Below are positions 348-19,369 of a stretch of DNA of 35,231 bases, piece by piece (position 1 is the first letter of the stretch; each line of letters opens with the position of its first letter). Source of the stretch: Pseudomonadota bacterium (lineage in GTDB: Bacteria; Pseudomonadota; Gammaproteobacteria; Burkholderiales; Methylophilaceae); NCBI GenBank assembly GCA_029781535.1, contig JAKOWL010000152.1:1-35231 (forward strand). Reading direction: 5' to 3'. A program made the position numbers and the translations under genes. The notes under the pieces are model-generated. The model did no database searches. It had not been told where the DNA came from and was given only the letters and a program-made list of their open reading frames with translations.

Positions 348-1604
348 TCAGCCTCTGATTCTTGCTGCTACTTCAGCCAGTTTACAGCGCGCCTGCTCGC
401 CTTGCTCCAATAAAGGTTTCAATGCAATTTCACCGGCATTCACTTCATCATCACCCAGAATAGCTGCAAAGCGTGCGCCACTTTTATCTGCACGCTTCAT
501 TTGCGATTTGAAACTGCCGCCACCCGCATTCATCACTACACTCAACCCTGCGTCACGCAAGACTTCTGCTGTGCTCATTGCCTGCTTTTCTGCCAGTTCT
601 CCGGCAAATACCAGATAAACATCCGGTGTTTGCGACGCGGTCACGCCGTATTCCTGCATCAGCAGAATCACGCGTTCCAGCCCGATACCGAAACCGCACG
701 CCGGTGTAGGGTTGCCGCCACTACGTTCCACCAGCCCATCATAACGGCCGCCACCGGCAATGGTACCCTGCGCACCCAGTTTGTCTGTCACCCACTCGTA
801 CACGGTACGGTTGTAATAATCCAAGCCGCGGACCAGCCTATGGTTAACGACATAGGAAACGCCCGCCTGGTTCAACAATTCACACACACCGTCAAAATGT
901 GCTTTGGATTCCGCACCCAGTGTGTCCATCAGCTTGGGCGCAGCTTCACACATCGCTTGCATTCGCGGGTTCTTGCTATCCAGGATACGCAATGGGTTGG
1001 TATGCAGACGGCGCTTGGCGTCTTCATCCAGAATGTCCATATACTGCTCGAAATACGCAATCAGGGTCTTGCGATAAGCAGCGCGCTCCTCTGCATCGCC
1101 AATCGTATTCAACTGCAGTTGCACGTCGGCGATGCCCAGTGCCTTCCATAACCTTGCCAGCAGGATGATCTGCTCGGCATCCACGTCCGGCCCGGCATAC
1201 CCGAATGCCTCGGCCCCGATTTGATGGAACTGGCGCTGACGACCCTTCTGCACGTTCTCGTGCCTGAACATCGGCCCCGTGTACCACAAGCGCTGCGGCG
1301 CATTATAGGTCAGACTATGTTCCACTACAGCACGCACCGTTCCTGCTGTGCCTTCCGGCCGCAATGTCAACTTGTCGCCATTAAGGGGATCCATCCAAGC
1401 GTACATCTCCTTCTCGACAATGTCAGTATGCTCACCCACGCTGCGGACAAACAATTCTGTACTCTCCACTACAGGTGTACGGATCTGGTTATAGCCGTAC
1501 TGCGCCAGCACCTGACGTGCGGTATCTTCCAGCTTGAACCACAGAGGAGTGGCCTCGGGCAGGATGTCGTAAAAACCTTTTATGCTCTGAATCTTTTGTG
1601 CCAT
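348..1604 (-). CDS. hisS: Histidyl-tRNA synthetase
   Basis: Charges tRNA-His in the cytoplasm. The 418-residue length is normal. Class II motifs are in order: motif 2 spans [15 protein letters not shown] (82-96) and [20 protein letters not shown] (113-132); the histidine-specific [15 protein letters not shown] is at 257-271; motif 3 is [13 protein letters not shown]; a C-terminal anticodon-binding domain follows. The N-terminus [17 protein letters not shown] matches the family, which supports the start at 1604. It lies 8 bp after the ispG stop on the same strand and one base before the SIMPL gene, inside a minus-strand housekeeping operon. Confidence 0.97.
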
Positions 1605-1612
1605 GAATTTGA

Positions 1613-2899
1613 TTAGTGATTAACTGCTTGAATCGGAATAGATTTTTTAGTATCAACCTGAGAGGCAGATTCCATGCGGCTTCCAGCCATATCGTTTTGA
1701 TAGTGCTCTTTTACGTAATCATCCACGATCTGCTGGAACTCTGCGGCGATATGGTCGCCCTTCAGCGTCACGGTTTTCACACCATCCACAAACACCGGCG
1801 CAACAGGCGTCTCACCAGTACCAGGCAAACTGATGCCGATATTGGCTAGCTTGGACTCTCCCGGCCCGTTGACCACGCAGCCCATCACCGCCACGTTCAT
1901 GTTCTCCACACCAGGATACCGGGTACGCCAAACCGGCATCTGGTTACGCAGGTAAGTCTGTATTTGCAAGGCCAGTTCCTGAAAATAAGTGCTGGTCGTG
2001 CGCCCACAACCCGGGCAGGCTGTCACCAAAGGCGTGAATGAACGGATACCCATGGTCTGCAAGATCTCCTGCGCGACGATGACTTCTTTGGTGCGGGATT
2101 CGTTAGGTTCTGGCGTCAGGCTGACTCGAATGGTGTCGCCGATGCCCTGCTGCAGCAAAATCGCCAGCGCTGCAGTGGAAGCCACTACACCTTTGGTGCC
2201 CATGCCTGCTTCGGTCAAGCCCAGATGCAGCGGGTAATCACAGCGTTTGCCCAGTTCGACATAAACCTTGACCAGATCCTGCACGTTGCTGACTTTGCAG
2301 GAAATAATGATCTGGTTCGGGTCCAGTCCCCATTCTACAGCCTGCTGCGCGCTTTCCAGTGCAGATTGGATCAGCGCCTCACGCATGAGGTCATCCGAAG
2401 ACAATGGATTAGCGGATTTGCCGTTCTCGTCCATCATCTGCGCCATCTTGGCCTGATCTAGGCTGCCCCAGTTGACGCCGATGCGCACGGATTTCTTGTA
2501 CTGGATCGCTGCTTCTATCATGGCGGCGAACTGCTCATCGCGCTTGCTGCCCTTGCCCACATTGCCCGGGTTGATGCGGTATTTGGCCAAAGCCTGCGCG
2601 CATTCCGGATAAGCCTGCAGCAATTTGTGCCCATTGAAGTGAAAATCCCCCACCAGCGGCACATTGCAGCCCATCGCATCCAAACCCACACGGATATTAG
2701 CGACCTGCGCAGCAGCCTCCATGGAGTTCACCGTGATGCGGACAACTTCACTGCCAGCTTGCCAGAGATCATAAACCTGCTGGATGGTGGCCTGCGCATT
2801 GGCGGTGTCAGTATTGGTCATGCTCTGCACCACCACCGGATGCTGCGAACCTACCGCCACATGGCCGATCATGACGGTGCGTGTGCTTCTACGCTGCAT
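1613..2899 (-). CDS. ispG: 4-hydroxy-3-methylbut-2-enyl diphosphate synthase (flavodoxin)
   Basis: Penultimate step of the MEP isoprenoid pathway: converts MEcPP to HMBPP using a [4Fe-4S] cluster. The three cluster cysteines are visible as ACPGCGRT (C295, C298) and [12 protein letters not shown] (C341), with the conserved Glu348 nearby. The N-terminal TIM-barrel signature [11 protein letters not shown] (22-32) and HFNGHKLL are present. At 428 residues it matches the short bacterial form. It sits between rodZ-like (4-bp gap) and hisS (8-bp gap), the common betaproteobacterial order, so one transcript is likely. Confidence 0.97.
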
Positions 2900-2903
2900 A
2901 CAA

Positions 2904-3917
2904 CTACTCTACCTTAAGTCGCGCCACATTGACTTTAGTATGCGGTCCCAGGTTCGTCTCAACACCATTCACGCTCAAGCTGGTACCGCTGGCGTTACCT
3001 ATCACCACGTTCAAAGGCGGAGGTGCTTCAAAAACCTCATGGTTACCGGCAAACAAAATCTTATTAAAGATCTCCTTACCATTAGCATCCGTGACGCTGA
3101 TCCAGGTTTCCTGTGTAGCAGAAAACTCCAGCTTGGAAACTTTCGTCGCATTGACTGGCGCCACAGCAGCTGTACCCTCAGATGGTGCTGCCGAAGGAGA
3201 CTGCGTCATCTGCGTATCAGCGTTTACCTGAGGTGCTGGCGTTGGCGCAACCTCAGTGACTGTTGCGGGCGTCGCAGTGTTGCCAGGTGGCAAGGTGATT
3301 TCCGTTGTGGCCGATTGCGCATCAGACGCTTCAGGTTGGCGTTCACCAGCCGGCAATGCAGCCTGTGGCAAAGGCTCCGGGGCAGGCAATTTACTGGCCG
3401 TTGGCGCCACAGGATTTGGTTTCTCAATGTAGGATTGGTAAAACAGCCAGACACCTGCGCCTAGCAGAACCACCAGCAACATAGGCAATAATCCCTTGAG
3501 ATTAGGTTTTTTATATTGCCTGCTACCAGCATAGGGGGCTGGAGGAACCGTGAAGGATTGTGGCGCCTTGTCTGGCACCAAGACATTGTATGCATCCAGT
3601 AACGGTTCGAAACTGATACCCAGTTGCTTGGCATAATTGCGGATGAACCCGCGCACGATAGTGGGTTCTGGCAGCGCATCAAAGTTGTCTGACTCCAAAG
3701 CCTCGATCTGCTTGACACTCAGGCGCAAGCGGCTTGCAACGGTCTGTACACTCAACCCCTGCTTTTCGCGATTCGTCCGCAGCGCTCCGCCGCAGCGGGA
3801 ACGATATTCCGACGTGACAGCGCTTTCTGACGTTGCGTCCTGCTGCGCTATCGATTCCTGACCAATCTCGGCAGCTTCCAGTTTTTCTTCTGTCTTGGTT
3901 TTAGGTTTTCTAGCCAT
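2904..3917 (-). CDS. rodZ: RodZ-like cytoskeletal HTH membrane protein
   Basis: RodZ links MreB to the cell-wall elongation machinery. The sequence shows an N-terminal charged segment, a Cro/CI-type helix-turn-helix ([20 protein letters not shown]), the typical [20 protein letters not shown] helix, one transmembrane helix ([19 protein letters not shown]), a Pro/Ala/Thr-rich periplasmic linker and a C-terminal beta domain ([20 protein letters not shown]) of the DUF4115 type. An upstream ATG at 3947 is in frame, but the ATG at 3917 (MARKPKTK) has AGGTGA about 5 bases before it and is preferred, giving 337 residues. It lies between pilF and ispG. Confidence 0.9.
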
Positions 3918-3958
3918 AACTTCACCTTTGGGAAACGGATGTTGCAACAGATGTCACA

Positions 3959-4723
3959 TCACTGAGCGTTTAAGAGTAATCTGGTTTGCTCAGCATTAGG
4001 ATACTGGCGGCGCAATTGCAACGCATAGCTCGCCTCGTCATCCTTGTTACCGGTTGCGCGGGCGATACGGACACCCAACCATAGCACATCTGGTCCTGGC
4101 GCTGACACCAGTGCATTTTGCAAAGTCTTTTGCGCGGTCGTCACATCACCACGCGCAAACTGTATCTCCGCCAGCTGATATGCTGCCGCATGTGTGAGCG
4201 GCTCTATCTGCAATGCCTTGTTGAGATACCGCTCGGCAGCAGCGAAATCCTTTTTGCGGACTGAGCAGATACCTGCATTTGCATAAGCCAGGTTTGGGGT
4301 GGAATACAATGGGTTCTTCACCGCATCCATGAACTGAACAACAGCCTCGTCGTAACGGCCTTTATTACATAAGAAGTTGCCGTAATTATTATGCGACTCA
4401 GAATTGTTAGGCTGGAGCTGAATAGCTTTTTTGAAGCTGGCTTCCGCTTCAGCGTCTTCACCTAATGCAGCACGCACCAACCCCATGCCATTATAGGCAA
4501 GCGCATAATTCGGATATGCCTTGATCGCCTCGGTAAATTCATCCAAAGCCACTTCCAGCTTGTTCTGCTGAAAATACGCCGCACCCAAGTCGGTATGCGC
4601 CTTGGCACGCGCCAGAGCAGCCACATCGGAACGTGAACTTTGGCTGGGCCCCGTAGCACAAGCAGAAACGCTCAACACAAACACCATCAAAGCTATGTAT
4701 TTCATCTTCCTCATGCCTGACAT
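3959..4723 (-). CDS. pilF: Type IV pilus assembly lipoprotein with TPR repeats (PilF/PilW)
   Basis: An outer-membrane pilotin-type lipoprotein that helps the PilQ secretin assemble. The N-terminus is a lipoprotein signal (KYIALMVFVLSVSACATG), with lipidation expected on the Cys of VSAC. It is followed by consecutive TPR units such as AYFQQNKLEVALDEFTEAIK, ALAYNGMGLVRAALGEDAEA and ESHNNYGNFLCNKGRYDEAV. About 254 residues, normal for PilF/PilW. Start codons at 4723, 4714 and 4705 are all possible; GGTGA lies about 9 bases before the 4714 ATG. The gap to the upstream rlmN stop is 9 bp. The rlmN-pilF-rodZ order is common in this class. Confidence 0.9.
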   Translation of the reverse strand: MSGMRKMKYIALMVFVLSVSACATGPSQSSRSDVAALARAKAHTDLGAAYFQQNKLEVALDEFTEAIKAYPNYALAYNGMGLVRAALGEDAEAEASFKKAIQLQPNNSESHNNYGNFLCNKGRYDEAVVQFMDAVKNPLYSTPNLAYANAGICSVRKKDFAAAERYLNKALQIEPLTHAAAYQLAEIQFARGDVTTAQKTLQNALVSAPGPDVLWLGVRIARATGNKDDEASYALQLRRQYPNAEQTRLLLNAQ

Positions 4724-13826: not shown

Positions 13827-13850
13827 TTGGTGGAGATGGGGGGAATTGAA
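13827..13850 (-). repeat. Left attachment repeat of the island (copy of the ssrA 3' end)
   Basis: A 24-bp sequence identical to 19007-19030, where it forms the 3' end of tmRNA including CCA. The flanks differ immediately outside it. It lies 21 bp past the integrase stop. This is the expected signature of site-specific integration into ssrA. Confidence 0.92.
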
Positions 13851-13871
13851 ACTGCGTCAATTAATTTAAAT

Positions 13872-15020
13872 TCAAACACTTACAACCTCCTTGTGGCAAA
13901 TTTGTTCCCAATACTGCATAACCTTGCCTCCTGCACTCGTATCAACTTCAGGAATCCAACGTCCGTAAGTTTTGCGAATCATCCCCCAATCTTTATGCCC
14001 CATTTGCTGGGCAACCCACATTGGGTTTTCCCCTGCTGACAAGAGAGTGCTAGCGTATGTATGTCTCGTTTGATATGGATTTCGATAGATGACCCCAGCT
14101 TTTCTTAAAGCTGGTTGCCATGCGGTTTTTCTGATCTGACCGTCTGTTTCCCACGGCTTATTGGTTCTTGGGTTATGAAAAACCTGTTTCCCTGTCAGAT
14201 AGCTAAAGGATTTTTGCCTGATAAGCGCTTCTAATGCAGGTGGAAATAATTTGATTTCCCTCTGCCCTGCTTGGGTTTTGGTTTCCTTGAATTGTTTGAG
14301 AACGAATGCGCGTCTAACCCTTACCACTTGCCTGTCAAAATCAATATCACTCCATTGAAGCGCTATCAATTCTGATGTCCTCATGCCTGTCCAGAATGCA
14401 AATTCGAATAGGTTTCTAGTTTGCACATCCATCACATCAAGAATCTTTTCTCTTTCTACAGGTGTGAATGGATCAGGTTCATTTTTTTCATTACGGAGAT
14501 TCTTGATCCTTTGCGTTGGATCACGATCAATCAATCCATCTGCAAATGCATCTCCCATGATTCCACGCAAAGGCGTAAGAATATTGTTTATTCTTTTGTT
14601 GGAAGTATTGTTTAGAGTAGATATCCAGACCCTAACATCTGAAGTTGTCAGATCAGCCAAAGACAAATGACCAAACTTCGGTTTAAGGTGAAACTCAACA
14701 ATGCTGTTATAACCTCTAAGCGTGCTTGCTGAGCATCTTTTCCTTGCAGCAGATATAAACTCATCAAGAGCCCTGCTTACTGACTTATATGCCCCTTTAA
14801 GGCCTATATTTGCACGCTTGCTATTTGGGAAGTGCATCCCATAATTGAAAGTGTTTGTAGATATCTCATGTTCTATTGCTGCTTTCTTTCGAGCCGCATA
14901 TTTAAGATTAGCTGGAGTGGCTTCAAGCCCAGTAGCTTCTCTACATCGTTTGCCCCGATAGGAAAACTCAATGTAGATTTTGTTGCCCCTGACGGTTACA
15001 CCTTTTTGCCTGCCATCCAT
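13872..15020 (-). CDS. int: Tyrosine site-specific integrase of the ssrA island
   Basis: Recombines the element with the 3' end of ssrA. The N-terminal arm-binding domain (about 1-70; GVTVRGNKIYIEFSYRGKR) is followed by a SAM-like core-binding domain (about 75-165) and the catalytic domain. Catalytic residues visible: R214 (TGMRTSELIAL), R319 in PYQTRHTYAS, H342 (QQMGHKDWG) and nucleophile Y352 (IRKTYGRWIP). In the usual HxxR box the first position is Tyr316, a variant common in this subfamily. 382 residues, full length. Its 3' end is 21 bp from the left repeat and its start overlaps the excisionase gene by 25 bp. Confidence 0.95.
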   Translation of the reverse strand: MDGRQKGVTVRGNKIYIEFSYRGKRCREATGLEATPANLKYAARKKAAIEHEISTNTFNYGMHFPNSKRANIGLKGAYKSVSRALDEFISAARKRCSASTLRGYNSIVEFHLKPKFGHLSLADLTTSDVRVWISTLNNTSNKRINNILTPLRGIMGDAFADGLIDRDPTQRIKNLRNEKNEPDPFTPVEREKILDVMDVQTRNLFEFAFWTGMRTSELIALQWSDIDFDRQVVRVRRAFVLKQFKETKTQAGQREIKLFPPALEALIRQKSFSYLTGKQVFHNPRTNKPWETDGQIRKTAWQPALRKAGVIYRNPYQTRHTYASTLLSAGENPMWVAQQMGHKDWGMIRKTYGRWIPEVDTSAGGKVMQYWEQICHKEVVSV

Positions 15021-15175
15021 GATTGGATCTCCGACAAATTGAAAACAATGCGACCGTCTGGTGCTTTATTCCACAACACACCTTGAGGCCATACGCCCTT
15101 TTTGATTTTGGCGCGTATCGCTTGCTCGGTATAACCTGTTTGTTCTACTACTTTTTTAATTAAGACTAAAGACAT
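14996..15175 (-). CDS. xis: Excisionase-like small DNA-binding protein
   Basis: A 59-residue frame read directly from the minus strand: it begins MSLVLIKKVVEQTGYTEQAI and ends SEIQSWMAGKKV. The pattern (helix-turn-helix near the start, WPQG.LW.KAPDGRI turn, then SEIQSWM) matches the short winged-helix excisionases that pair with this type of integrase. GGAG lies 7 bases before the ATG at 15175. The 3' end overlaps the integrase start by 25 bp, the usual xis-int arrangement. An inverted repeat and a TTGACA-type promoter lie just upstream. Confidence 0.85.
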   Translation of the reverse strand: MSLVLIKKVVEQTGYTEQAIRAKIKKGVWPQGVLWNKAPDGRIVFNLSEIQSWMAGKKV

Positions 15176-15176
15176 G

Positions 15177-15209
15177 ATATGACTCCATCGGGTTATGATG
15201 GTGTCATAT
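15177..15209 (-). promoter_or_regulatory. Inverted repeat upstream of excisionase (candidate operator)
   Basis: Arms ATATGACtCCATC (15177-15189) and GATGGtGTCATAT (15197-15209) match over 12 of 13 positions around a 7-base centre. The repeat lies directly before the xis ATG, covers its Shine-Dalgarno, and touches the candidate -10 box. It could be a repressor/Xis binding site or an RNA structure hiding the ribosome site. Confidence 0.6.
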
Positions 15210-15235
15210 TAAATTACACTAGTGTTATATGTCAA
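15208..15235 (-). promoter_or_regulatory. Candidate promoter for xis-int
   Basis: On the minus strand TTGACA (15230-15235) is followed after 16 bases by TTTAAT (15208-15213). The spacer contains the perfect 10-bp palindrome ACACTAGTGT (15216-15225). The start of transcription would fall about 25 bases before the xis ATG. Confidence 0.55.
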
Positions 15236-15243
15236 TACACTAT
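15217..15243. repeat. 27-bp direct repeat, copy 1
   Basis: Begins CACTAGTG and contains TGTCAATACACTAT; the second copy at 15597-15623 differs at two positions. This copy covers the stop codon of the 15240 gene and the spacer and -35 region of the candidate xis promoter. Confidence 0.75.
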
Positions 15244-15599
15244 TTTACTAATTCTGGAGAATTTGTTTTGACATCTGGATATTCGCCTTTAACGGCTTTC
15301 CAGAAGTTGGATAATTTAGATGTAACACGCCATGCCATAGACTTATGGGCATCCTTACCAATCGGCACACAACGCTCTTGAATTTTGACGCCTAGAATAC
15401 GTTCATACTCTTTGATGGTTGCTCGTCCATGCATTAAGTAGATTGGCTTCCAGCCCATCGTTCTAGCCATCATCAGCATACCGAAGGCATTACGAAGAAT
15501 CTCACTGTTCCCTTTGAAATTAAGAAAAGTGCGTTCCCATATTTCGAACATCTCTTCTTGTGAAATTTCCTTGATTTCATCAGTCATGAACTGGCTCAC
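15240..15599 (-). CDS. Uncharacterised island protein (119 residues)
   Basis: I do not recognise the family. The product is acidic at the N-terminus and basic in the second half (GVKIQERCVPIGKDAHKSMA). It has one Trp-rich stretch (MGWKPIYLMHGRATIKEYER), no signal peptide and no membrane helix. The longest frame starts with GTG at 15599, inside the repeat at 15597-15623; the ATG at 15587 (MTDEIKEISQ) is also plausible. It lies between the excisionase and the 201-residue gene, all minus strand, with the same AT-rich codon use as the rest of the island. A regulatory role is possible but unsupported. Confidence 0.65.
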   Translation of the reverse strand: MSQFMTDEIKEISQEEMFEIWERTFLNFKGNSEILRNAFGMLMMARTMGWKPIYLMHGRATIKEYERILGVKIQERCVPIGKDAHKSMAWRVTSKLSNFWKAVKGEYPDVKTNSPELVK

Positions 15600-15623
15600 T
15601 AGTGGTATTTGTCAATACACTAT
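15597..15623. repeat. 27-bp direct repeat, copy 2
   Basis: Second copy of the 15217-15243 repeat, with two mismatches and a 380-bp offset. It lies at the start of the 119-residue gene and keeps the TTGACA hexamer on the minus strand, but I see no matching -10 box here. Confidence 0.75.
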
Positions 15624-15661
15624 AATCAATTAAGAATTAAAATTCAAGCATTGAAAAATGC

Positions 15662-16267
15662 CTACTGTGGAACATATGCAGATAATTCGGCTATAACTTT
15701 CTGATTGCCGCTCATTCTTGCGCATTCCAGTCCTGCTATTAAGCCAAGAATTTTTACACTATCTGTTGCATCTTGAATCTCATCATCAGGGTATGTAGGA
15801 GTTTTGCCTTCTTTAGCCCACTGGCAAATTTGATAATATCCAGCATGAGTATAGGAAGAAAATAATTTGTATCCAATCTCCTTGAGATTTAATAAGTTTT
15901 CATAAACATCTTTAGGCAATTTAGATTTTTCAAGGTTATCCAAAAGCTCTTTAAGAGAAGGAAGCTCTACACCCTTACTGTAGTTATCAATTTGTTTATC
16001 TGTTGCACACAAATGAATCCATGTTCCTTTTATAGTTGCTTCAAATAATGGACGAATCAGCACAAAAGCGGATGTATGCATATCCAATCTAAATAGTTGC
16101 GAAATAGCATGAAGATGCTCCATAGCAACCTGAAAGGTAGCAATAGCTAAACGAACTCTTATCCCATCAGGGTATTTAAGAGTAGGAAGCACCATATCCA
16201 TATGAGCTAATAGATCAGCAATTTGGTCTGGACAAGACCTCATTGAATTACTTTGATTTGAGTCCAT
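15662..16267 (-). CDS. Uncharacterised helical island protein, DUF6988/DUF5677-like
   Basis: A 201-residue, apparently all-helical soluble protein. The segment VRLAIATFQVAMEHLHAISQ (about 42-61), followed by HTSAFVLIRPLFEATIKGTW and SYTHAGYYQICQWAKEG, resembles families of unknown function I associate with DUF6988 and, more loosely, DUF5677; this is from memory and needs a profile search. Conserved-looking residues include R..FEA and the YTHAG motif. The start at 16267 has a purine-rich AGAAG upstream. Such proteins often occur as cargo in islands; the function is unknown. Confidence 0.65.
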   Translation of the reverse strand: MDSNQSNSMRSCPDQIADLLAHMDMVLPTLKYPDGIRVRLAIATFQVAMEHLHAISQLFRLDMHTSAFVLIRPLFEATIKGTWIHLCATDKQIDNYSKGVELPSLKELLDNLEKSKLPKDVYENLLNLKEIGYKLFSSYTHAGYYQICQWAKEGKTPTYPDDEIQDATDSVKILGLIAGLECARMSGNQKVIAELSAYVPQ

Positions 16268-16700
16268 TAATTTCTTCTTTGAGTTTTTATGATTGATAGA
16301 AGAATTCTAAAGAAATTACGATTTATGTACCATTATCAAGTTTAATAGGCTTCGCATATGCGCGAAGCGCGGCTTCGCCGCGACACGCGCATATTCTCGC
16401 CCTATTCAACATCGTAAAAACTTGAACTATCTTTGCATTGGCAAAGGTTGCTTTGGCTTGCAGGGCGCGCCAAGCACTTCAGCTAAGCGCAGAGATTAGT
16501 GCTCGCGTTGATACATTTTCGAAGATTGTAAGATTAGGTTTTGAAGGGTTCCCTCGCCCCCCACCGCTTCGCGGCGGGTTCCCCGCTCGGCGCGCCGCCG
16601 CGCCCATACCCTCTAGGCTAACCATATATTAAAAATTCATATATCATGCAAGTATTCCTGTTCCAACTCATGTACCTTAGATTTTTACTTTAGGATCTTT
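16268..16700. other. Non-coding island segment with GC-rich hairpins
   Basis: 433 bp between divergent genes (minus at left, plus at right). The surroundings are AT-rich, but two patches are GC-rich: 16344-16406 and about 16545-16620. The second holds CCGC-TTC-GCGG (16564-16574), a GGCGCGCC palindrome and further GCC/GGC repeats; another GGCGCGCC lies near 16463. A 64-codon open frame inside (16438-16632) is probably chance. The protease gene promoter should lie near the right end, where AT-rich TATATT-like stretches occur. Confidence 0.6.
16344..16406. repeat. Large nested inverted repeat (63 nt)
   Basis: Three nested pairs: AATAGG (16344-16349) with CCTATT (16401-16406); ATATGCGCG (16356-16364) with CGCGCATAT (16386-16394); and CGCGGC (16368-16373) with GCCGCG (16377-16382) around a TTC loop. 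As single-stranded DNA or RNA this would fold into a long hairpin. Candidates are a rolling-circle origin or a structured transcript end. Confidence 0.75.
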
Positions 16701-17750
16701 ATGTCAAATAAAAATAGAAAGACATCGCGTAATCAAACACAACAATACCAATCCATTGCAGTAAGAACAAATATCGTTCCGTCATTGTTAGATGCAATGG
16801 TGGATAACAAGGAATACTCATCTATCGTTGATAAAACTGTAGCTCCCAATGTAAATCTTCTAGACGAAGTTGTACGTAGCATTAAAGATATAGAAGATCT
16901 GAGAAATCGACCTTGTTTATTATACGTTGGAAATGTCATTAGCTCTGACGGCACCTCATCCAGCATAGATGCTACTGATGATCTACCTTTTCAGGAATTA
17001 GTTAAGACAGTACCCGCAGATCAAAGATCGGTTGACGTTGTTCTTGCCACAAGTGGCGGATCTGGAGAGCAAATCACTAGATTTGTTCAATGCTTAAGAC
17101 GAAGGTTTGATGAGGTCAATTTTCTGATTCCATCCTTCTGTATGAGCGCAGGAACATTATTCGCGTTATCAGGAGACAATATATACATGACAAAAAATGC
17201 TTGTTTAGGTCCTATTGACCCTCAAGTTCCTTCAAAAGACGGTCGTTATGTACCTGCCCAAGCATTACTTTTATTAGTTTCGAAATTACAAAAAGATGGT
17301 GAAGATTCATTAAAAAATGGCACTGGCGTGCCATGGGCTGCAATAAGACTCATCGATAGTTTGGATAAAAAGGAATTAGGTGCAGCTATATCAGCTAGCG
17401 ATTGGTCAAAGTCTATAGCAACTCAATTTTTAAATTTATATAAATTTAAAAATTGGGTAACTCGACAATCGAGCGGCACACCAGTAACAGATGACTATAG
17501 ATTAAGAAGAGCGGAAGAGGTTGCAGAAGCCTTGGTCTCACATGACAGGTGGAAAAGTCATGGGCACGCAATATCTAGAGAAGTATTATGGGATGAAATT
17601 AAATTAAAAGTAGAGCACCCTGATGATAATCTGGAAAGATTGCTCACTAGACAATGGGCTTTAATAACCTGGTTATTTGATAAGACACCGATTCAAAAAA
17701 TGATTTGCTCAACAAATTTCCGCTATGTTAAATTTAGAGCACAACCTTAA
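16701..17750 (+). CDS. SDH-family ClpP-fold serine protease (island cargo)
   Basis: A 349-residue member of the serine dehydrogenase proteinase (SDH) group within the ClpP/crotonase fold. The oxyanion segment is LATSGGSGEQITR (SGG 118-120). The likely nucleophile is Ser149 in SFCMSAGTLFALSGD, followed by the conserved ACLGPIDPQVP (168-177). The C-terminal DRWKSHGHAISREVLWDEIK resembles the family tail. No signal peptide or membrane helix, so probably cytoplasmic. GGATC lies before the ATG at 16701. The first 50 residues are charged and low in order. A 71-residue gene follows by 11 bp. Codon use is AT-rich, like the island and unlike the chromosome. Target unknown. Confidence 0.85.
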   Translation: MSNKNRKTSRNQTQQYQSIAVRTNIVPSLLDAMVDNKEYSSIVDKTVAPNVNLLDEVVRSIKDIEDLRNRPCLLYVGNVISSDGTSSSIDATDDLPFQELVKTVPADQRSVDVVLATSGGSGEQITRFVQCLRRRFDEVNFLIPSFCMSAGTLFALSGDNIYMTKNACLGPIDPQVPSKDGRYVPAQALLLLVSKLQKDGEDSLKNGTGVPWAAIRLIDSLDKKELGAAISASDWSKSIATQFLNLYKFKNWVTRQSSGTPVTDDYRLRRAEEVAEALVSHDRWKSHGHAISREVLWDEIKLKVEHPDDNLERLLTRQWALITWLFDKTPIQKMICSTNFRYVKFRAQP

Positions 17751-17761
17751 CTGGAGTAATT

Positions 17762-17977
17762 ATGATTGATAAAAAACTTTTGGAACAATTAGGATGGGGC
17801 ACTGAATTAATAAACGAAGTAGAAACAGTAGCTCAATCGTTAAGAGAATCCATATCAACTACTGATATTGTTGGATATTCAACGGAGATATATCTTGCTG
17901 GAAATCAAATCCATGCTCCACAGCATATAGAATACTCTACCGAAAGCATTACTCTAGAAAACAAAGCTAGTAGATAA
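17762..17977 (+). CDS. Small uncharacterised partner of the SDH-type protease
   Basis: A 71-residue acidic protein (MIDKKLLEQLGWGTELINEV...) with a helical N-terminal half and a polar C-terminal half; no membrane segment or recognised domain. It has a clear GGAG 7 bases before the ATG and lies 11 bp after the protease stop, so co-translation is likely. Possible roles are adaptor, inhibitor or substrate of the protease; all are inference. Confidence 0.7.
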   Translation: MIDKKLLEQLGWGTELINEVETVAQSLRESISTTDIVGYSTEIYLAGNQIHAPQHIEYSTESITLENKASR

Positions 17978-17993
17978 TTTAAATATATTAACT

Positions 17994-18812
17994 TTATATA
18001 GGTAGCCTATTAATTCGATAACCTCCCCAAGTACATGCCCACCCATATATCGGGGCTTTATCTTTACCTTCCGACTGAAAATAATACCTAGCTACACCAC
18101 CATGCAATACGATTAGAGAAACTAACTCTTGAGCCGCTTCCTGTATTGTTTCGGCTCCCAATAAATATTTAACACGTGTCGGTTTTATATCCTTACTGGC
18201 TCGGTATCTGTGGCCTCCAAGTTCCCTCATAGCATTACCTAGCTGCTTAGTTAAATACTTCAGCAAATAATTACAAATCTTAACCACGTTGTCTTTGTCA
18301 GACACTCCAGCCCTTCTATGCCAACTTACATTAAAAGTACCACCTAGCTTACCTGCCGCCCTCTTCCAGCATTTATGATAAAAATGCAGTTTTTGTTTTG
18401 GCATCCAACCAGCGATTGGAAAATGAAAATGAAAAGCCCCACGTTCCTGTAATTCAGGAAAAACAATGAACTTATCATTTGGAAATTTTTCATGGACTAA
18501 ACGCTGAAAACGATCCATCACAGCCCAAGCTTTTTTAGGGTCGGTGACATTTTCCCTGAATGTGGTTGTACCTAATGAGGTCGGTCTTAAAGTAAGGATT
18601 AAACGCCTTGCATTTGTTCTTGCTCGCCTGATGGCAAACTTTTCGTTTTCTTCCCTATTCTCGCTTTCCCCTCTTTCAGCCTTTTCTTCTGGATACCTAT
18701 TTTTTGGTTCTGGGAATGGATACCAACTGCCTTCGACTAACCCATCACCATAATCGTAAATCGTAGCCATACAGTTTGAAGGATTGCCTGAGGGTGAATA
18801 AACCTTAGCCAT
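17994..18812 (-). CDS. rep: HUH-type rolling-circle replication initiation protein
   Basis: Nicks a replication origin through a tyrosine. Motifs, counted from the ATG at 18812 (272 residues): motif 1 RRLILTLRP (about 69-77), the HUH motif FHFHFPI with H128 and H130, and the tyrosine motif NYLLKYLTK with Y182 and Y186. This layout fits the rolling-circle replication proteins of small plasmids and filamentous-phage-like elements. A GTG at 18818 is also in frame, but the AGGGGG run is spaced correctly only for the ATG. It is convergent with the protease operon (16 bp gap). Direct repeats lie upstream. No coat or mobilisation genes accompany it. Confidence 0.85.
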   Translation of the reverse strand: MAKVYSPSGNPSNCMATIYDYGDGLVEGSWYPFPEPKNRYPEEKAERGESENREENEKFAIRRARTNARRLILTLRPTSLGTTTFRENVTDPKKAWAVMDRFQRLVHEKFPNDKFIVFPELQERGAFHFHFPIAGWMPKQKLHFYHKCWKRAAGKLGGTFNVSWHRRAGVSDKDNVVKICNYLLKYLTKQLGNAMRELGGHRYRASKDIKPTRVKYLLGAETIQEAAQELVSLIVLHGGVARYYFQSEGKDKAPIYGWACTWGGYRINRLPI

Positions 18813-18850
18813 AGACACCCCCTAAACGAAGGTGTTCTAGGCTCAAAAAC

Positions 18851-18892
18851 TGTGGCGAAATTGTGGCATAACTGTGGCAAAAATGCGCCACA
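18851..18892. repeat. Iteron-like TGTGGC repeats upstream of rep
   Basis: TGTGGC occurs at 18851, 18862 and 18873, exactly 11 bp apart, and its reverse complement GCCACA at 18887-18892, forming a hairpin with the third copy. The array lies about 40 bp upstream of the rep start and 115 bp from the right attachment repeat. A further TGTGGCAAA lies at 13892 near the left repeat. It could be Rep iterons or integrase arm sites. Confidence 0.7.
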
Positions 18893-18948
18893 ATGCAGCC
18901 AAATGGGGAATATTGTAGCCCACTACCCAGCAGGCGAAGAAAACAAAA

Positions 18949-18972
18949 AAACCCATTAGAATCAATGGGTTT
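18949..18972 (-). terminator. Intrinsic terminator downstream of ssrA, supplied by the island
   Basis: A 9-bp stem AAACCCATT (18949-18957) with AATGGGTTT (18964-18972) and a 6-base loop. On the minus strand it is followed by TTTTTGTTTTC. It sits 36 bp after the tmRNA 3' end and lies inside the island, so it replaces the native ssrA terminator displaced to 13795. Confidence 0.8.
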
Positions 18973-18977
18973 AATTG

Positions 18978-18995
18978 GTCTAGAAAAGTCTAGAC
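18978..18995. repeat. Paired GTCTAGA sites next to the right attachment repeat
   Basis: GTCTAGA occurs at 18978 and 18988 in direct orientation, and each contains the palindrome TCTAGA. They lie 12 bp from the right attachment repeat, so a recombination role is possible but unproven. Confidence 0.4.
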
Positions 18996-19006
18996 ACTCT
19001 TGCGAT

Positions 19007-19030
19007 TTGGTGGAGATGGGGGGAATTGAA
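19007..19030 (-). repeat. Right attachment repeat (3' end of ssrA)
   Basis: Identical to 13827-13850. This copy belongs to the intact tmRNA gene: it includes the acceptor-stem 3' strand, CCA and part of the T arm. Integration here leaves the tmRNA functional. Confidence 0.92.
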
Positions 19031-19369
19031 CCCCCGTCCGCAAGCCCTCCACAGACAGTTCTACATACTTAGCTGTGTTGTTTGATTTAACCGCACATTC
19101 ACCAACGAGCAAGCAACTGTGAGGCGAGTCACCTTAAGTTTAATATCGTATCAAGTAACCCGATACGACACGATCCTCTCTAAATGACGCTGCTGCGGTT
19201 GCCCGCCCGGCCGAGAGGCCTTCCGGTGCAGCGTCCGGCTGGATTAAGCAGCCAGAGCGTAAGTTTCGTCGTTTGCGACTATACTTTTTCAGATGGATTT
19301 ACGAGGAAACCTGAATCCTCGGTATGCCCTGCACTGCTTTGTAACCCACGTCGAAACCGGGTCATCCCC
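19008..19369 (-). ncRNA. ssrA: Transfer-messenger RNA (tmRNA)
   Basis: A one-piece tmRNA of about 362 nt that rescues stalled ribosomes with SmpB. The 5' end GGGGATGACCCGG (from 19369) pairs through GGGGATG with CATCTCC just before the 3' CCA, and the T arm GGTTCAATTCC is intact. The tag reading frame (19244-19276, minus) encodes ANDETYALAA then TAA, with the resume codon GCA in the usual place. Gene ends were set from the acceptor stem. The 3' end is the integration site of the neighbouring island. Confidence 0.96.

What the first reader, a model, noticed from the sequence alone, without database searches (positions are those of the whole stretch)
13827..19030. An ssrA-integrated rolling-circle element of about 5.2 kb
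Identical 24-bp repeats bound a segment with a tyrosine integrase, an overlapping excisionase, an HUH replication protein and iteron-like repeats, but no coat, conjugation or transposase genes. It looks like an integrative plasmid or phage satellite that excises and then replicates by rolling circle. The cargo is an SDH-type protease pair and two unknown genes. I know of no described family with this gene set.
Basis: partly seen in the sequence, partly recalled or inferred. Interest (0 to 1): 0.75.

Follow-up and report, generated by a model that had tools for sequence, protein, structure and literature searches.

The report
Tiny ssrA-integrated rolling-circle defence element
A 5.2-kb piece of mobile DNA sits in the tmRNA gene of a Methylophilus-like bacterium; it belongs to a widespread, apparently unnamed family of very small islands that pair one integration module with interchangeable phage-type rolling-circle replication genes and defence-like cargo.

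Summary
Identical 24-bp repeats (13827-13850, 19007-19030; the second is the ssrA 3' end) bound a low-GC segment with integrase, overlapping excisionase, HUH replication protein, DUF6988 (a PADLOC defence candidate), an SDH protease plus 71-aa ORF, and orf119. It is one of a family: of 80 loci with related integrases, 42 carry a rolling-circle initiator upstream of int, 24 of them behind ssrA, and 21 have plausible flanking repeats bounding 4.0-9.1 kb. The initiator is exchanged under one integrase lineage (ORF2-G2P, gpII, P2-type gpA); cargo varies and includes defence-like genes; orf119 is a rare hallmark gene without family or fold match. One relative's empty ssrA site was found. Correction: the 'iterons' lie at fixed distances from the ssrA end whichever Rep follows and are missing in a diverged integrase clade; they look like integrase/excisionase arm sites, not an origin. 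Most likely Int/Xis excise the element, Rep copies it by rolling circle, and a helper phage carries it. None of these steps was observed; Zot is absent from the host assembly and present in 4 of 26 carriers. Ten searches of the held library found no such family; closest are PICMIs and Pseudomonas tmRNA islands.

The parts
19008..19369 (-). ssrA (tmRNA), integration target, left intact
   Evidence: ARAGORN and Rfam RF00023, E 7e-94
19007..19030 (.). att repeat at the ssrA 3' end
   Evidence: 24-bp identical repeat
13827..13850 (.). distal att repeat, 21 bp from the int stop codon
   Evidence: 24-bp identical repeat
18977..18991 (-). AGACC (+26 from the ssrA end) and AGACT (+16), 10 bp apart: presumed integrase arm-type sites
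   Evidence: AGACC at both +16 and +26 in 12 of 31 members; the window has only one exact copy
18949..18972 (-). terminator-like hairpin with T run between ssrA and rep
   Evidence: 6 such sites in the region, 3.9 +/- 2.2 in shuffles, so weak on its own
   Evidence: +131 and +142 are within one base of the family positions +130 and +141
17994..18818 (-). rep: HUH rolling-circle initiator (REP_ORF2-G2P), HxH in GAFHFHF and Tyr motif YLLKYL
   Evidence: Pfam 2e-10, PHROG 3419 2.9e-33, alignment with inovirus Reps
17762..17977 (+). 71-aa ORF behind the SDH gene, no family
16701..17750 (+). cargo: ClpP-like SDH serine protease
   Evidence: PF01972 1.3e-13; PHROG 11747 1.5e-46
15662..16267 (-). cargo: DUF6988 protein, phage-defence candidate PDC-S52
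   Evidence: PF22491 4e-29; PADLOC 9.4e-29
15240..15599 (-). orf119: hallmark small helical protein of the family (a downstream ATG may be the real start)
   Evidence: HMM matches beside int in 25 of 80 integrase-related loci; alignments; model pLDDT 84
15597..15623 (-). promoter/operator-like copy 1, in front of orf119, overlapping its listed GTG start
   Evidence: 27-bp repeat, 25 of 27 identical to copy 2; 0 of 200 shuffles
15217..15243 (-). promoter/operator-like copy 2, in front of xis, with TTGACA and palindrome ACACTAGTGT
   Evidence: promoter scan hit, but such hits are no more frequent in the region than in shuffles (12 against 15.3)
14996..15175 (-). xis: 59-aa AlpA-like excisionase
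   Evidence: PHROG 9668 7e-13; 59-66% identical to relatives
13872..15020 (-). int: 382-aa tyrosine integrase, open throughout
   Evidence: 64% and 62% identical to ssrA-element integrases in G004 and G065

Best explanation
A very small integrative element of a modular family. Int inserts the circle into the 3' end of ssrA and restores that end; Xis, helped by phased sites in the attP arm between ssrA and rep, drives excision (inferred from anatomy). The excised circle is copied by rolling circle by its HUH Rep (inferred from the Rep family). The replicon is a plug-in: under related integrases it is an inovirus-type ORF2/G2P protein, a gpII protein or a P2-type gpA, each a rolling-circle initiator (shown by comparison). 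Orf119 is a family-specific small protein, probably a regulator: in this copy its start region and that of xis carry the same 27-bp promoter/operator-like sequence (shown; regulation inferred). The remaining space holds exchangeable cargo, here DUF6988 and an SDH protease, which by analogy protects the host against phages. With no capsid, conjugation or mobilisation genes found, it most likely moves by being packaged by a helper phage, that is, as a phage satellite (inferred; helper unknown).
For: Boundaries and intact ssrA. Same arrangement elsewhere: 42 of 80 integrase-related loci have a rolling-circle Rep within 6.5 kb upstream of int on the same strand; 27 of these lie behind an RNA gene (24 tmRNA), and 22 of these have a repeat of 13 bp or more; leaving out L112, sizes are 4.0-9.1 kb. 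Replicon exchange on the integrase tree: the window's clade of 8 rows (support 95) holds 4 ORF2-G2P, 3 gpII and 1 row without detected Rep; 4 changes of Rep type are needed over the tree (quick method). Pfam assigns PF05840, PF05144 and PF23343 to the Reps. Arm repeats at fixed distance from the RNA-gene end: two or more of CACA +119/+130/+141 in 14 of 31 (largest of 60 shift controls 4), 17 of 31 if one base of slack is allowed, the window among these; AGACC at +16 and +26 in 12 of 31 (largest control 3). Empty site: in G007 ssrA runs directly into the sequence that follows the distal att in G004. Cargo: 50 chosen cargo proteins give matches to 171 PADLOC families, among them reverse-transcriptase defence systems, TIR, PD-Lambda-2, methylases and PDC-S models; Pfam adds caspase, KAP NTPase, ParDE and HepT. 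The window's Rep is nearest to filamentous-phage Reps in the plasmid and phage collections.
Against: No excision, circular form, replication or transfer was observed. No helper: no Zot gene in the host assembly (94.7% complete) and in only 4 of 26 carrier genomes, against 14 of 274 class genomes; Fisher p 0.059, with different taxa compared. Only 1 of the 7 tested carriers with an inovirus-type Rep has Zot. No DNA similarity of the element to any phage record beyond two short integrase stretches. The window's own empty site was not found: its left flank lies next to ssrA in none of the 20 fetched relative stretches, several of them cut short by contig ends. Orf119 is missing from several members (L040 and L041 among them), and the duplicated operator is not significant as a direct repeat in any of 7 relatives tested. 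The arm repeats are absent or partial in 14 of 31 members. Many cargo proteins have no match.
Confidence: 0.6

Rival explanations
1. A helper-free integrative plasmid: same excision and rolling-circle replication, but it spreads by uptake of naked DNA or as a chance passenger, not by phage particles.
For: All genes are explained without a helper; no packaging gene found and no Zot gene in the host assembly. The Rep also resembles Reps of three small Gram-positive plasmids at 27-31%.
Against: Presence across Beta- and Gammaproteobacteria with defence-like cargo and phage-type Reps suits phage-linked elements better (my judgement). Among 25 plasmid records with integrase matches the best is 50% identical and none was read for gene content, so a free form was neither found nor excluded.
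Confidence: 0.22
2. An integrative mobilisable element: the HUH protein acts (also) as a relaxase at an oriT and a conjugative plasmid carries the element.
For: HUH Reps and relaxases share chemistry (recalled); MOBT relaxases are related to Rep_trans initiators (PMC11389934, passage seen), and one orf119 locus has a Rep_trans protein.
Against: The Reps of the integrase family studied fall into phage replication families (gpA, gpII, ORF2/G2P), not relaxase families; no coupling or conjugation gene in the window element. An oriT was not sought.
Confidence: 0.08
3. A decayed filamentous prophage that lost its coat and Zot genes.
For: Rep is inovirus-like; a filamentous prophage with Rep and Zot lies beside ssrA in the same bacterial family (L028), and pMsip02, a filamentous-phage genome deposited as a plasmid, carries an SDH/SppA-type protease.
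Against: The same compact architecture with other Rep families and cargo recurs in many genomes; int, xis and rep are open; the L028 prophage has a different integrase (Arm-DNA-bind_3).
Confidence: 0.05
4. A static defence island that no longer moves.
For: No movement observed; a relative in G013 has a truncated integrase and seems to be decaying.
Against: The window copy has open int, xis, rep and identical att repeats; ssrA is occupied with different cargo in G000, G004 and G013 of the same genus.
Confidence: 0.05

Closest known systems
PICMI, phage-inducible chromosomal minimalist islands (PMC10803314; start of abstract and passages seen)
   Same: Six-gene scale, integrase plus AlpA-like factor, no capsid genes, immunity to phage reported, circular/concatemeric replication
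   Different: PICMIs are searched for by a DUF3987/DUF5906 primase and the fis target in Vibrionaceae; here an HUH initiator, ssrA, Beta-/Gammaproteobacteria
Pseudomonas tmRNA genomic islands I23/I44/I55 (PMC12595487; start of abstract and passages seen)
   Same: Tyrosine integrase at tmRNA, direct repeats, AlpA, defence cargo, no transfer genes; one is carried by a jumbo phage
   Different: Those islands share about 18 kb and have int at the tmRNA end with alpA at the far end; here about 5 kb, int at the far end with xis overlapping it, rep next to ssrA; no rolling-circle Rep appeared in the passages read ('rolling' occurs 0 times in the text)
Inovirus satellites: pDolos plasmid of Shewanella (Schmid 2024, PMC11107163 not held; known only through citations) and RS1 of CTXphi (one passage; its genes recalled)
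   Same: Small satellites of filamentous phages (rolling-circle replicon and lack of coat genes recalled)
   Different: pDolos is an autonomous plasmid and RS1 (recalled) uses host XerCD; neither is a tyrosine-integrase ssrA element with exchanged Reps
Filamentous phages of Methylophilaceae: pMsip02 (deposited as plasmid) and the prophage beside ssrA in L028
   Same: Rep of the same family (36-37% identical); L028 lies beside ssrA; SDH-fold cargo in pMsip02
   Different: They carry Zot and pMsip02 an annotated capsid gene; L028 has another integrase family
Actinobacterial AICEs such as pSAM2 (recalled)
   Same: Int, Xis and a rolling-circle Rep in a tRNA-type site
   Different: No transfer (Tra) gene found; RepSA match only 18.4 bits against a cut-off of 34

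Membership tests
PICMI | integrase plus AlpA | tested here: inconclusive
   Int clear; excisionase by PHROG 7e-13, but Pfam AlpA 0.027, under its cut-off
PICMI | DUF3987/DUF5906 primase | tested here: not met
   No such Pfam match among the element's proteins
PICMI | integration in fis | tested here: not met
   Integrated in ssrA
Inovirus | rolling-circle Rep of inovirus type | tested here: met
   PF23343 2e-10, alignment
Inovirus | coat proteins and Zot/pI | tested here: not met
   No such match in Pfam or PHROGs; no Zot in the host assembly
Phage satellite (functional class) | induction and packaging by a helper phage | not testable with these tools
   Needs culture; Zot co-occurrence is not significant
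Pseudomonas tmRNA islands (IntY class) | int next to tmRNA and alpA at the opposite end | tested here: not met
   rep is next to ssrA; xis overlaps int at the far end
AICE (pSAM2 type) | RepSA initiator and a Tra translocase | tested here: not met
   RepSA 18.4 of 34 bits; no Tra match
IME | relaxase with oriT | tested here: inconclusive
   HUH protein present but of a replication family; oriT not sought
Family proposed here (ssrA rolling-circle elements) | Int of this lineage at an RNA gene, AlpA-like Xis, exchangeable HUH Rep beside the RNA gene, phased attP arm, size under 10 kb | tested here: met
   in the window the CACA block is in register with a one-base shift and one AGACC copy reads AGACT

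The most novel reading that the evidence does not exclude
A widespread, undescribed family of 4-9-kb phage satellites in Beta- and Gammaproteobacteria built as a chassis: one ssrA-specific recombination module with a fixed attP arm, a hallmark regulator (orf119) and a socket beside ssrA into which rolling-circle initiators from tailed and filamentous phages are swapped, possibly to change helper, with defence genes as payload.
Probability: 0.35. Interest if true: 0.8.

Novelty: new variant of a known kind. Interest (0 to 1): 0.62.

Why it matters
Elements this small are easily missed by prophage and satellite finders, yet they seem to carry defence-like genes between many environmental Proteobacteria, ammonia oxidisers and methylotrophs among them. 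A family in which the replication gene is swapped while the recombination module and its DNA sites stay fixed makes it testable whether the replicon decides which phage, if any, carries a satellite. Its cargo bays are also a hunting ground for new defence genes; the DUF6988 and SDH genes here are candidates.

Tried and rejected
Replication iterons: rejected, because the repeats keep their distance from the ssrA end (+119/+130/+141, within one base) with gpA, gpII and ORF2-G2P Reps, while the distance from the ssrA end to the Rep start varies (390 bp in L079, 395 bp in L080, 189 bp in the window, taking the first start codon; arithmetic), and because they are absent from the six Rheinheimera/Idiomarina-type members (L109, L111, L112, L115, L116, L117), which also have gpA.

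General orf119 operator: the 27-bp duplication is significant in the window (0 of 200 shuffles), but none of 7 relatives reached significance for a direct repeat; for inverted matches L042 had 4 of 200 and L045 13 of 200. Kept as a window-specific observation.

Orf119 by structure: confident helical model, but no PDB or viral fold match with E below 0.001 and no convincing sequence match in the PDB. Function left open.

Single-protein scans of viral contigs with Rep and with SDH found no relative. Rep and SDH had no meaningful sequence match in the PDB. The literature library showed no paper with this gene set in ten searches, but most subscription papers and preprints are not in it.

Of the 38 of 80 integrase-related loci without a detected Rep, four (L047, L105, L113, L118) were looked at as elements; the other 34 only by the HMM, RNA-gene and repeat searches. 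Some start or end at contig edges, and 24 rows without Rep form, with two gpA rows, a separate integrase clade. I did not test whether these are tailed prophages, although related integrases occur on viral contigs of roughly 30-60 kb.

The 50 cargo proteins scanned were my choice of non-core ORFs from the window and 24 loci, not all ORFs, and some come from the four loci without a detected Rep (the KAP NTPase is from L118); tables were given for the first 25 families only, so no count of defence-positive elements is claimed.

While checking this report I found that L028 shares with pMsip02 only Rep and two small genes and that no second ssrA-end copy of 12 bp or more lies in the 14 kb held; a last Pfam scan showed Zot in L028. 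The wording on L028 was changed accordingly. The same check showed that the window's CACA repeats are in register with the family (one-base shift), not displaced by a turn as I first wrote.


Full report
What is there. The window is contig G000:C105, from a genome grouped in one genus with Methylophilus methylotrophus DSM 46235 (the G004 contig and that of the named locus L040 have the same length, 1,347,054 bases; the link is inferred). Identical 24-bp repeats lie at 13827-13850 and 19007-19030; the second is the 3' end of an intact tmRNA gene. Between them, reading away from ssrA: a repeat-rich stretch, rep, a 71-aa ORF and an SDH protease on the other strand, DUF6988, orf119, xis and int, then the second repeat. 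The segment is poorer in G+C than most of the contig. The DUF6988 protein matches the PADLOC candidate PDC-S52 at 9.4e-29.

It is a family. In the genus, G004 has an element with a 64% identical integrase at ssrA but with a gpII-type Rep (PF05144, 1.3e-61) and other cargo; G065, in another family of the order, has a 62% identical integrase, an ORF2-G2P Rep and a TIR-DUF3298 gene. G013 holds a third element of the genus, with a gpII Rep and a truncated integrase. A scan of one genome per species with the three-integrase alignment gave 165 pattern matches, 110 relatives, 80 kept. With HMMs built here, 42 of the 80 have a rolling-circle Rep within 6.5 kb upstream of int on the same strand; 27 of these lie behind an RNA gene within 9.5 kb (24 tmRNA, 3 tRNA); 22 have a second copy of the RNA 3' end of at least 13 bp. 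One of the 22 (L112, 13 bp at 10.5 kb) may be chance; the others span 4.0-9.1 kb. Hosts of these include Methylophilus, Nitrosomonas, Thiothrix, Methylotetracoccus, Marinobacterium, Motiliproteus, Catenovulum, Rheinheimera and Idiomarina. Four loci (L047, L105, L113, L118) have repeats but no Rep of the three types.

Replicon exchange. The integrase tree (71 rows, quick method) has a large clade in which 28 of 31 rows have gpA and, elsewhere, the window's clade of eight rows with four ORF2-G2P, three gpII and one without detected Rep; sister rows L045/L046 and L079/L080 differ in Rep type, and four changes are needed among the three types. L086 and L106, with gpA, fall in the clade of mostly Rep-less loci. 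All three Rep families are HUH rolling-circle initiators (general knowledge; family assignment).

The repeats are an attP arm. I aligned 31 members (the window, L235 and 29 loci; 20 gpA, 5 gpII, 4 ORF2-G2P, 2 without detected Rep) on the end of the RNA gene. They show AGACC at +16, +26 and often +36, frequently an inverted copy near +85/+95, and CACA at +119, +130, +141. Two or more of the three CACA copies at exactly these positions occur in 14 of 31 (largest of 60 circular-shift controls 4), AGACC at both +16 and +26 in 12 of 31 (control 3); in a subset of 20 thinned for relatives the counts are 11 and 8. The 14 are gpA and gpII members; with one base of slack the count is 17 and includes three ORF2-G2P members, the window among them. 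L045 has CACG in place of CACA. The sites thus occur with all three Rep types; they are missing in the six Rheinheimera/Idiomarina-type members, which also carry gpA, and in L071 and L118, and L101 has only an AGACC copy. They follow the recombination module better than the Rep. Which protein binds which block is inference: 10-bp phased sites next to the core suit an arm-binding integrase, 11-bp phased repeats suit a cooperative excisionase (analogy with lambda, recalled).

Orf119. This small protein has no Pfam or NCBIfam family and no PHROG (best 0.16), no match in 50,697 phage records, is found in 2 of 369 class genomes, one being the window's own, and in 2 viral contigs, both with gpA, excisionase and integrase of this family. 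It lies beside int in 25 of the 80 loci (22 with, 3 without a detected Rep). It also occurs with other integrases next to rolling-circle Reps: L032 with ORF2-G2P, L264 with Rep_trans. The AlphaFold model is helical (pLDDT 84) without fold matches. In the window a 27-bp sequence with TTGACA and a palindrome core stands before both orf119 and xis (25 of 27 identical, 0 of 200 shuffles); relatives do not show this, and promoter-like hits in the region are no more frequent than in shuffles. A regulator of excision is the best guess.

Cargo. Of 50 chosen cargo proteins, scans list matches to reverse-transcriptase defence systems (RT_IX, RT-TIR_XII), PD-Lambda-2, TIR/ThsB, type II methylases, PDC-S20 and PDC-S66 and Pfam caspase, KAP NTPase, an ABC-3C domain, ParDE and HepT. 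The PHROG scan, of which 25 of 60 families were shown, lists methyltransferases, regulators and toxin-antitoxin parts and no named structural protein. The window's SDH protein shares a stretch of the protease core with the SppA-like protein of the filamentous phage pMsip02 (36% over 69 residues).

Mobility. G007 supplies the empty site for the G004 element: its ssrA (117-487) is followed without interruption by the G004 post-att flank, aligned from 476 to 4312 at 76% identity. For the window element itself no empty site was found. Helper: no Zot gene in G000; 4 of 26 carriers against 14 of 274 class genomes (Fisher p 0.059), a comparison across different taxa. Only 1 of the 7 tested carriers with an inovirus-type Rep (L045) had Zot; the other three with Zot (L053, L066, L078) are gpA carriers. 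So packaging by filamentous phages is possible but not supported beyond the Rep's kinship; for gpA members a tailed-phage helper is equally conceivable.

Verdict. A genuine integrative element with a rolling-circle replicon, member of a broad and apparently unnamed family, most like a phage satellite in logic and nearest to PICMIs in scale, but different in replicon and target. Literature basis: ten searches of the held library and passages of five papers; none was read whole, and the inovirus-satellite paper of 2024 could not be read.

Noticed in passing
L038 (NC_012972.1, Methylovorus plasmid pMsip02): A record deposited as a 9.8-kb plasmid has the annotated gene set of a filamentous phage (Rep, capsid, DUF2523, Zot) plus an SppA-like protease; its Rep is 95% identical to that of the Zot-bearing prophage beside ssrA in L028.
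   Followed up: partly
L028 7520-8299: The filamentous prophage beside ssrA in L028 carries a gene with a putAbiC (putative abortive infection) domain match, 1.1e-15.
   Followed up: no
L242/L243 (G015) and L244 (G020): Two genomes of the genus hold a second, partial or diverged ssrA copy on the same contig; in G015 one copy is cut at the T-arm where the att core lies, as if a larger island with its own ssrA piece had inserted.
   Followed up: no
L264 3786-6694 and L032 6609-9400: Orf119 relatives sit next to Rep_trans or ORF2-G2P Reps with other integrases near tRNA-Arg and tRNA-Lys, hinting that orf119 plus a rolling-circle Rep may be a unit independent of the ssrA integrase.
   Followed up: partly
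window 16333-16417: An 85-bp imperfect inverted repeat (arms 41 nt, 71% complementary) and a GC-rich noncoding stretch up to about 16610 lie between DUF6988 and the SDH gene; unexplained, possibly a strand origin.
   Followed up: no
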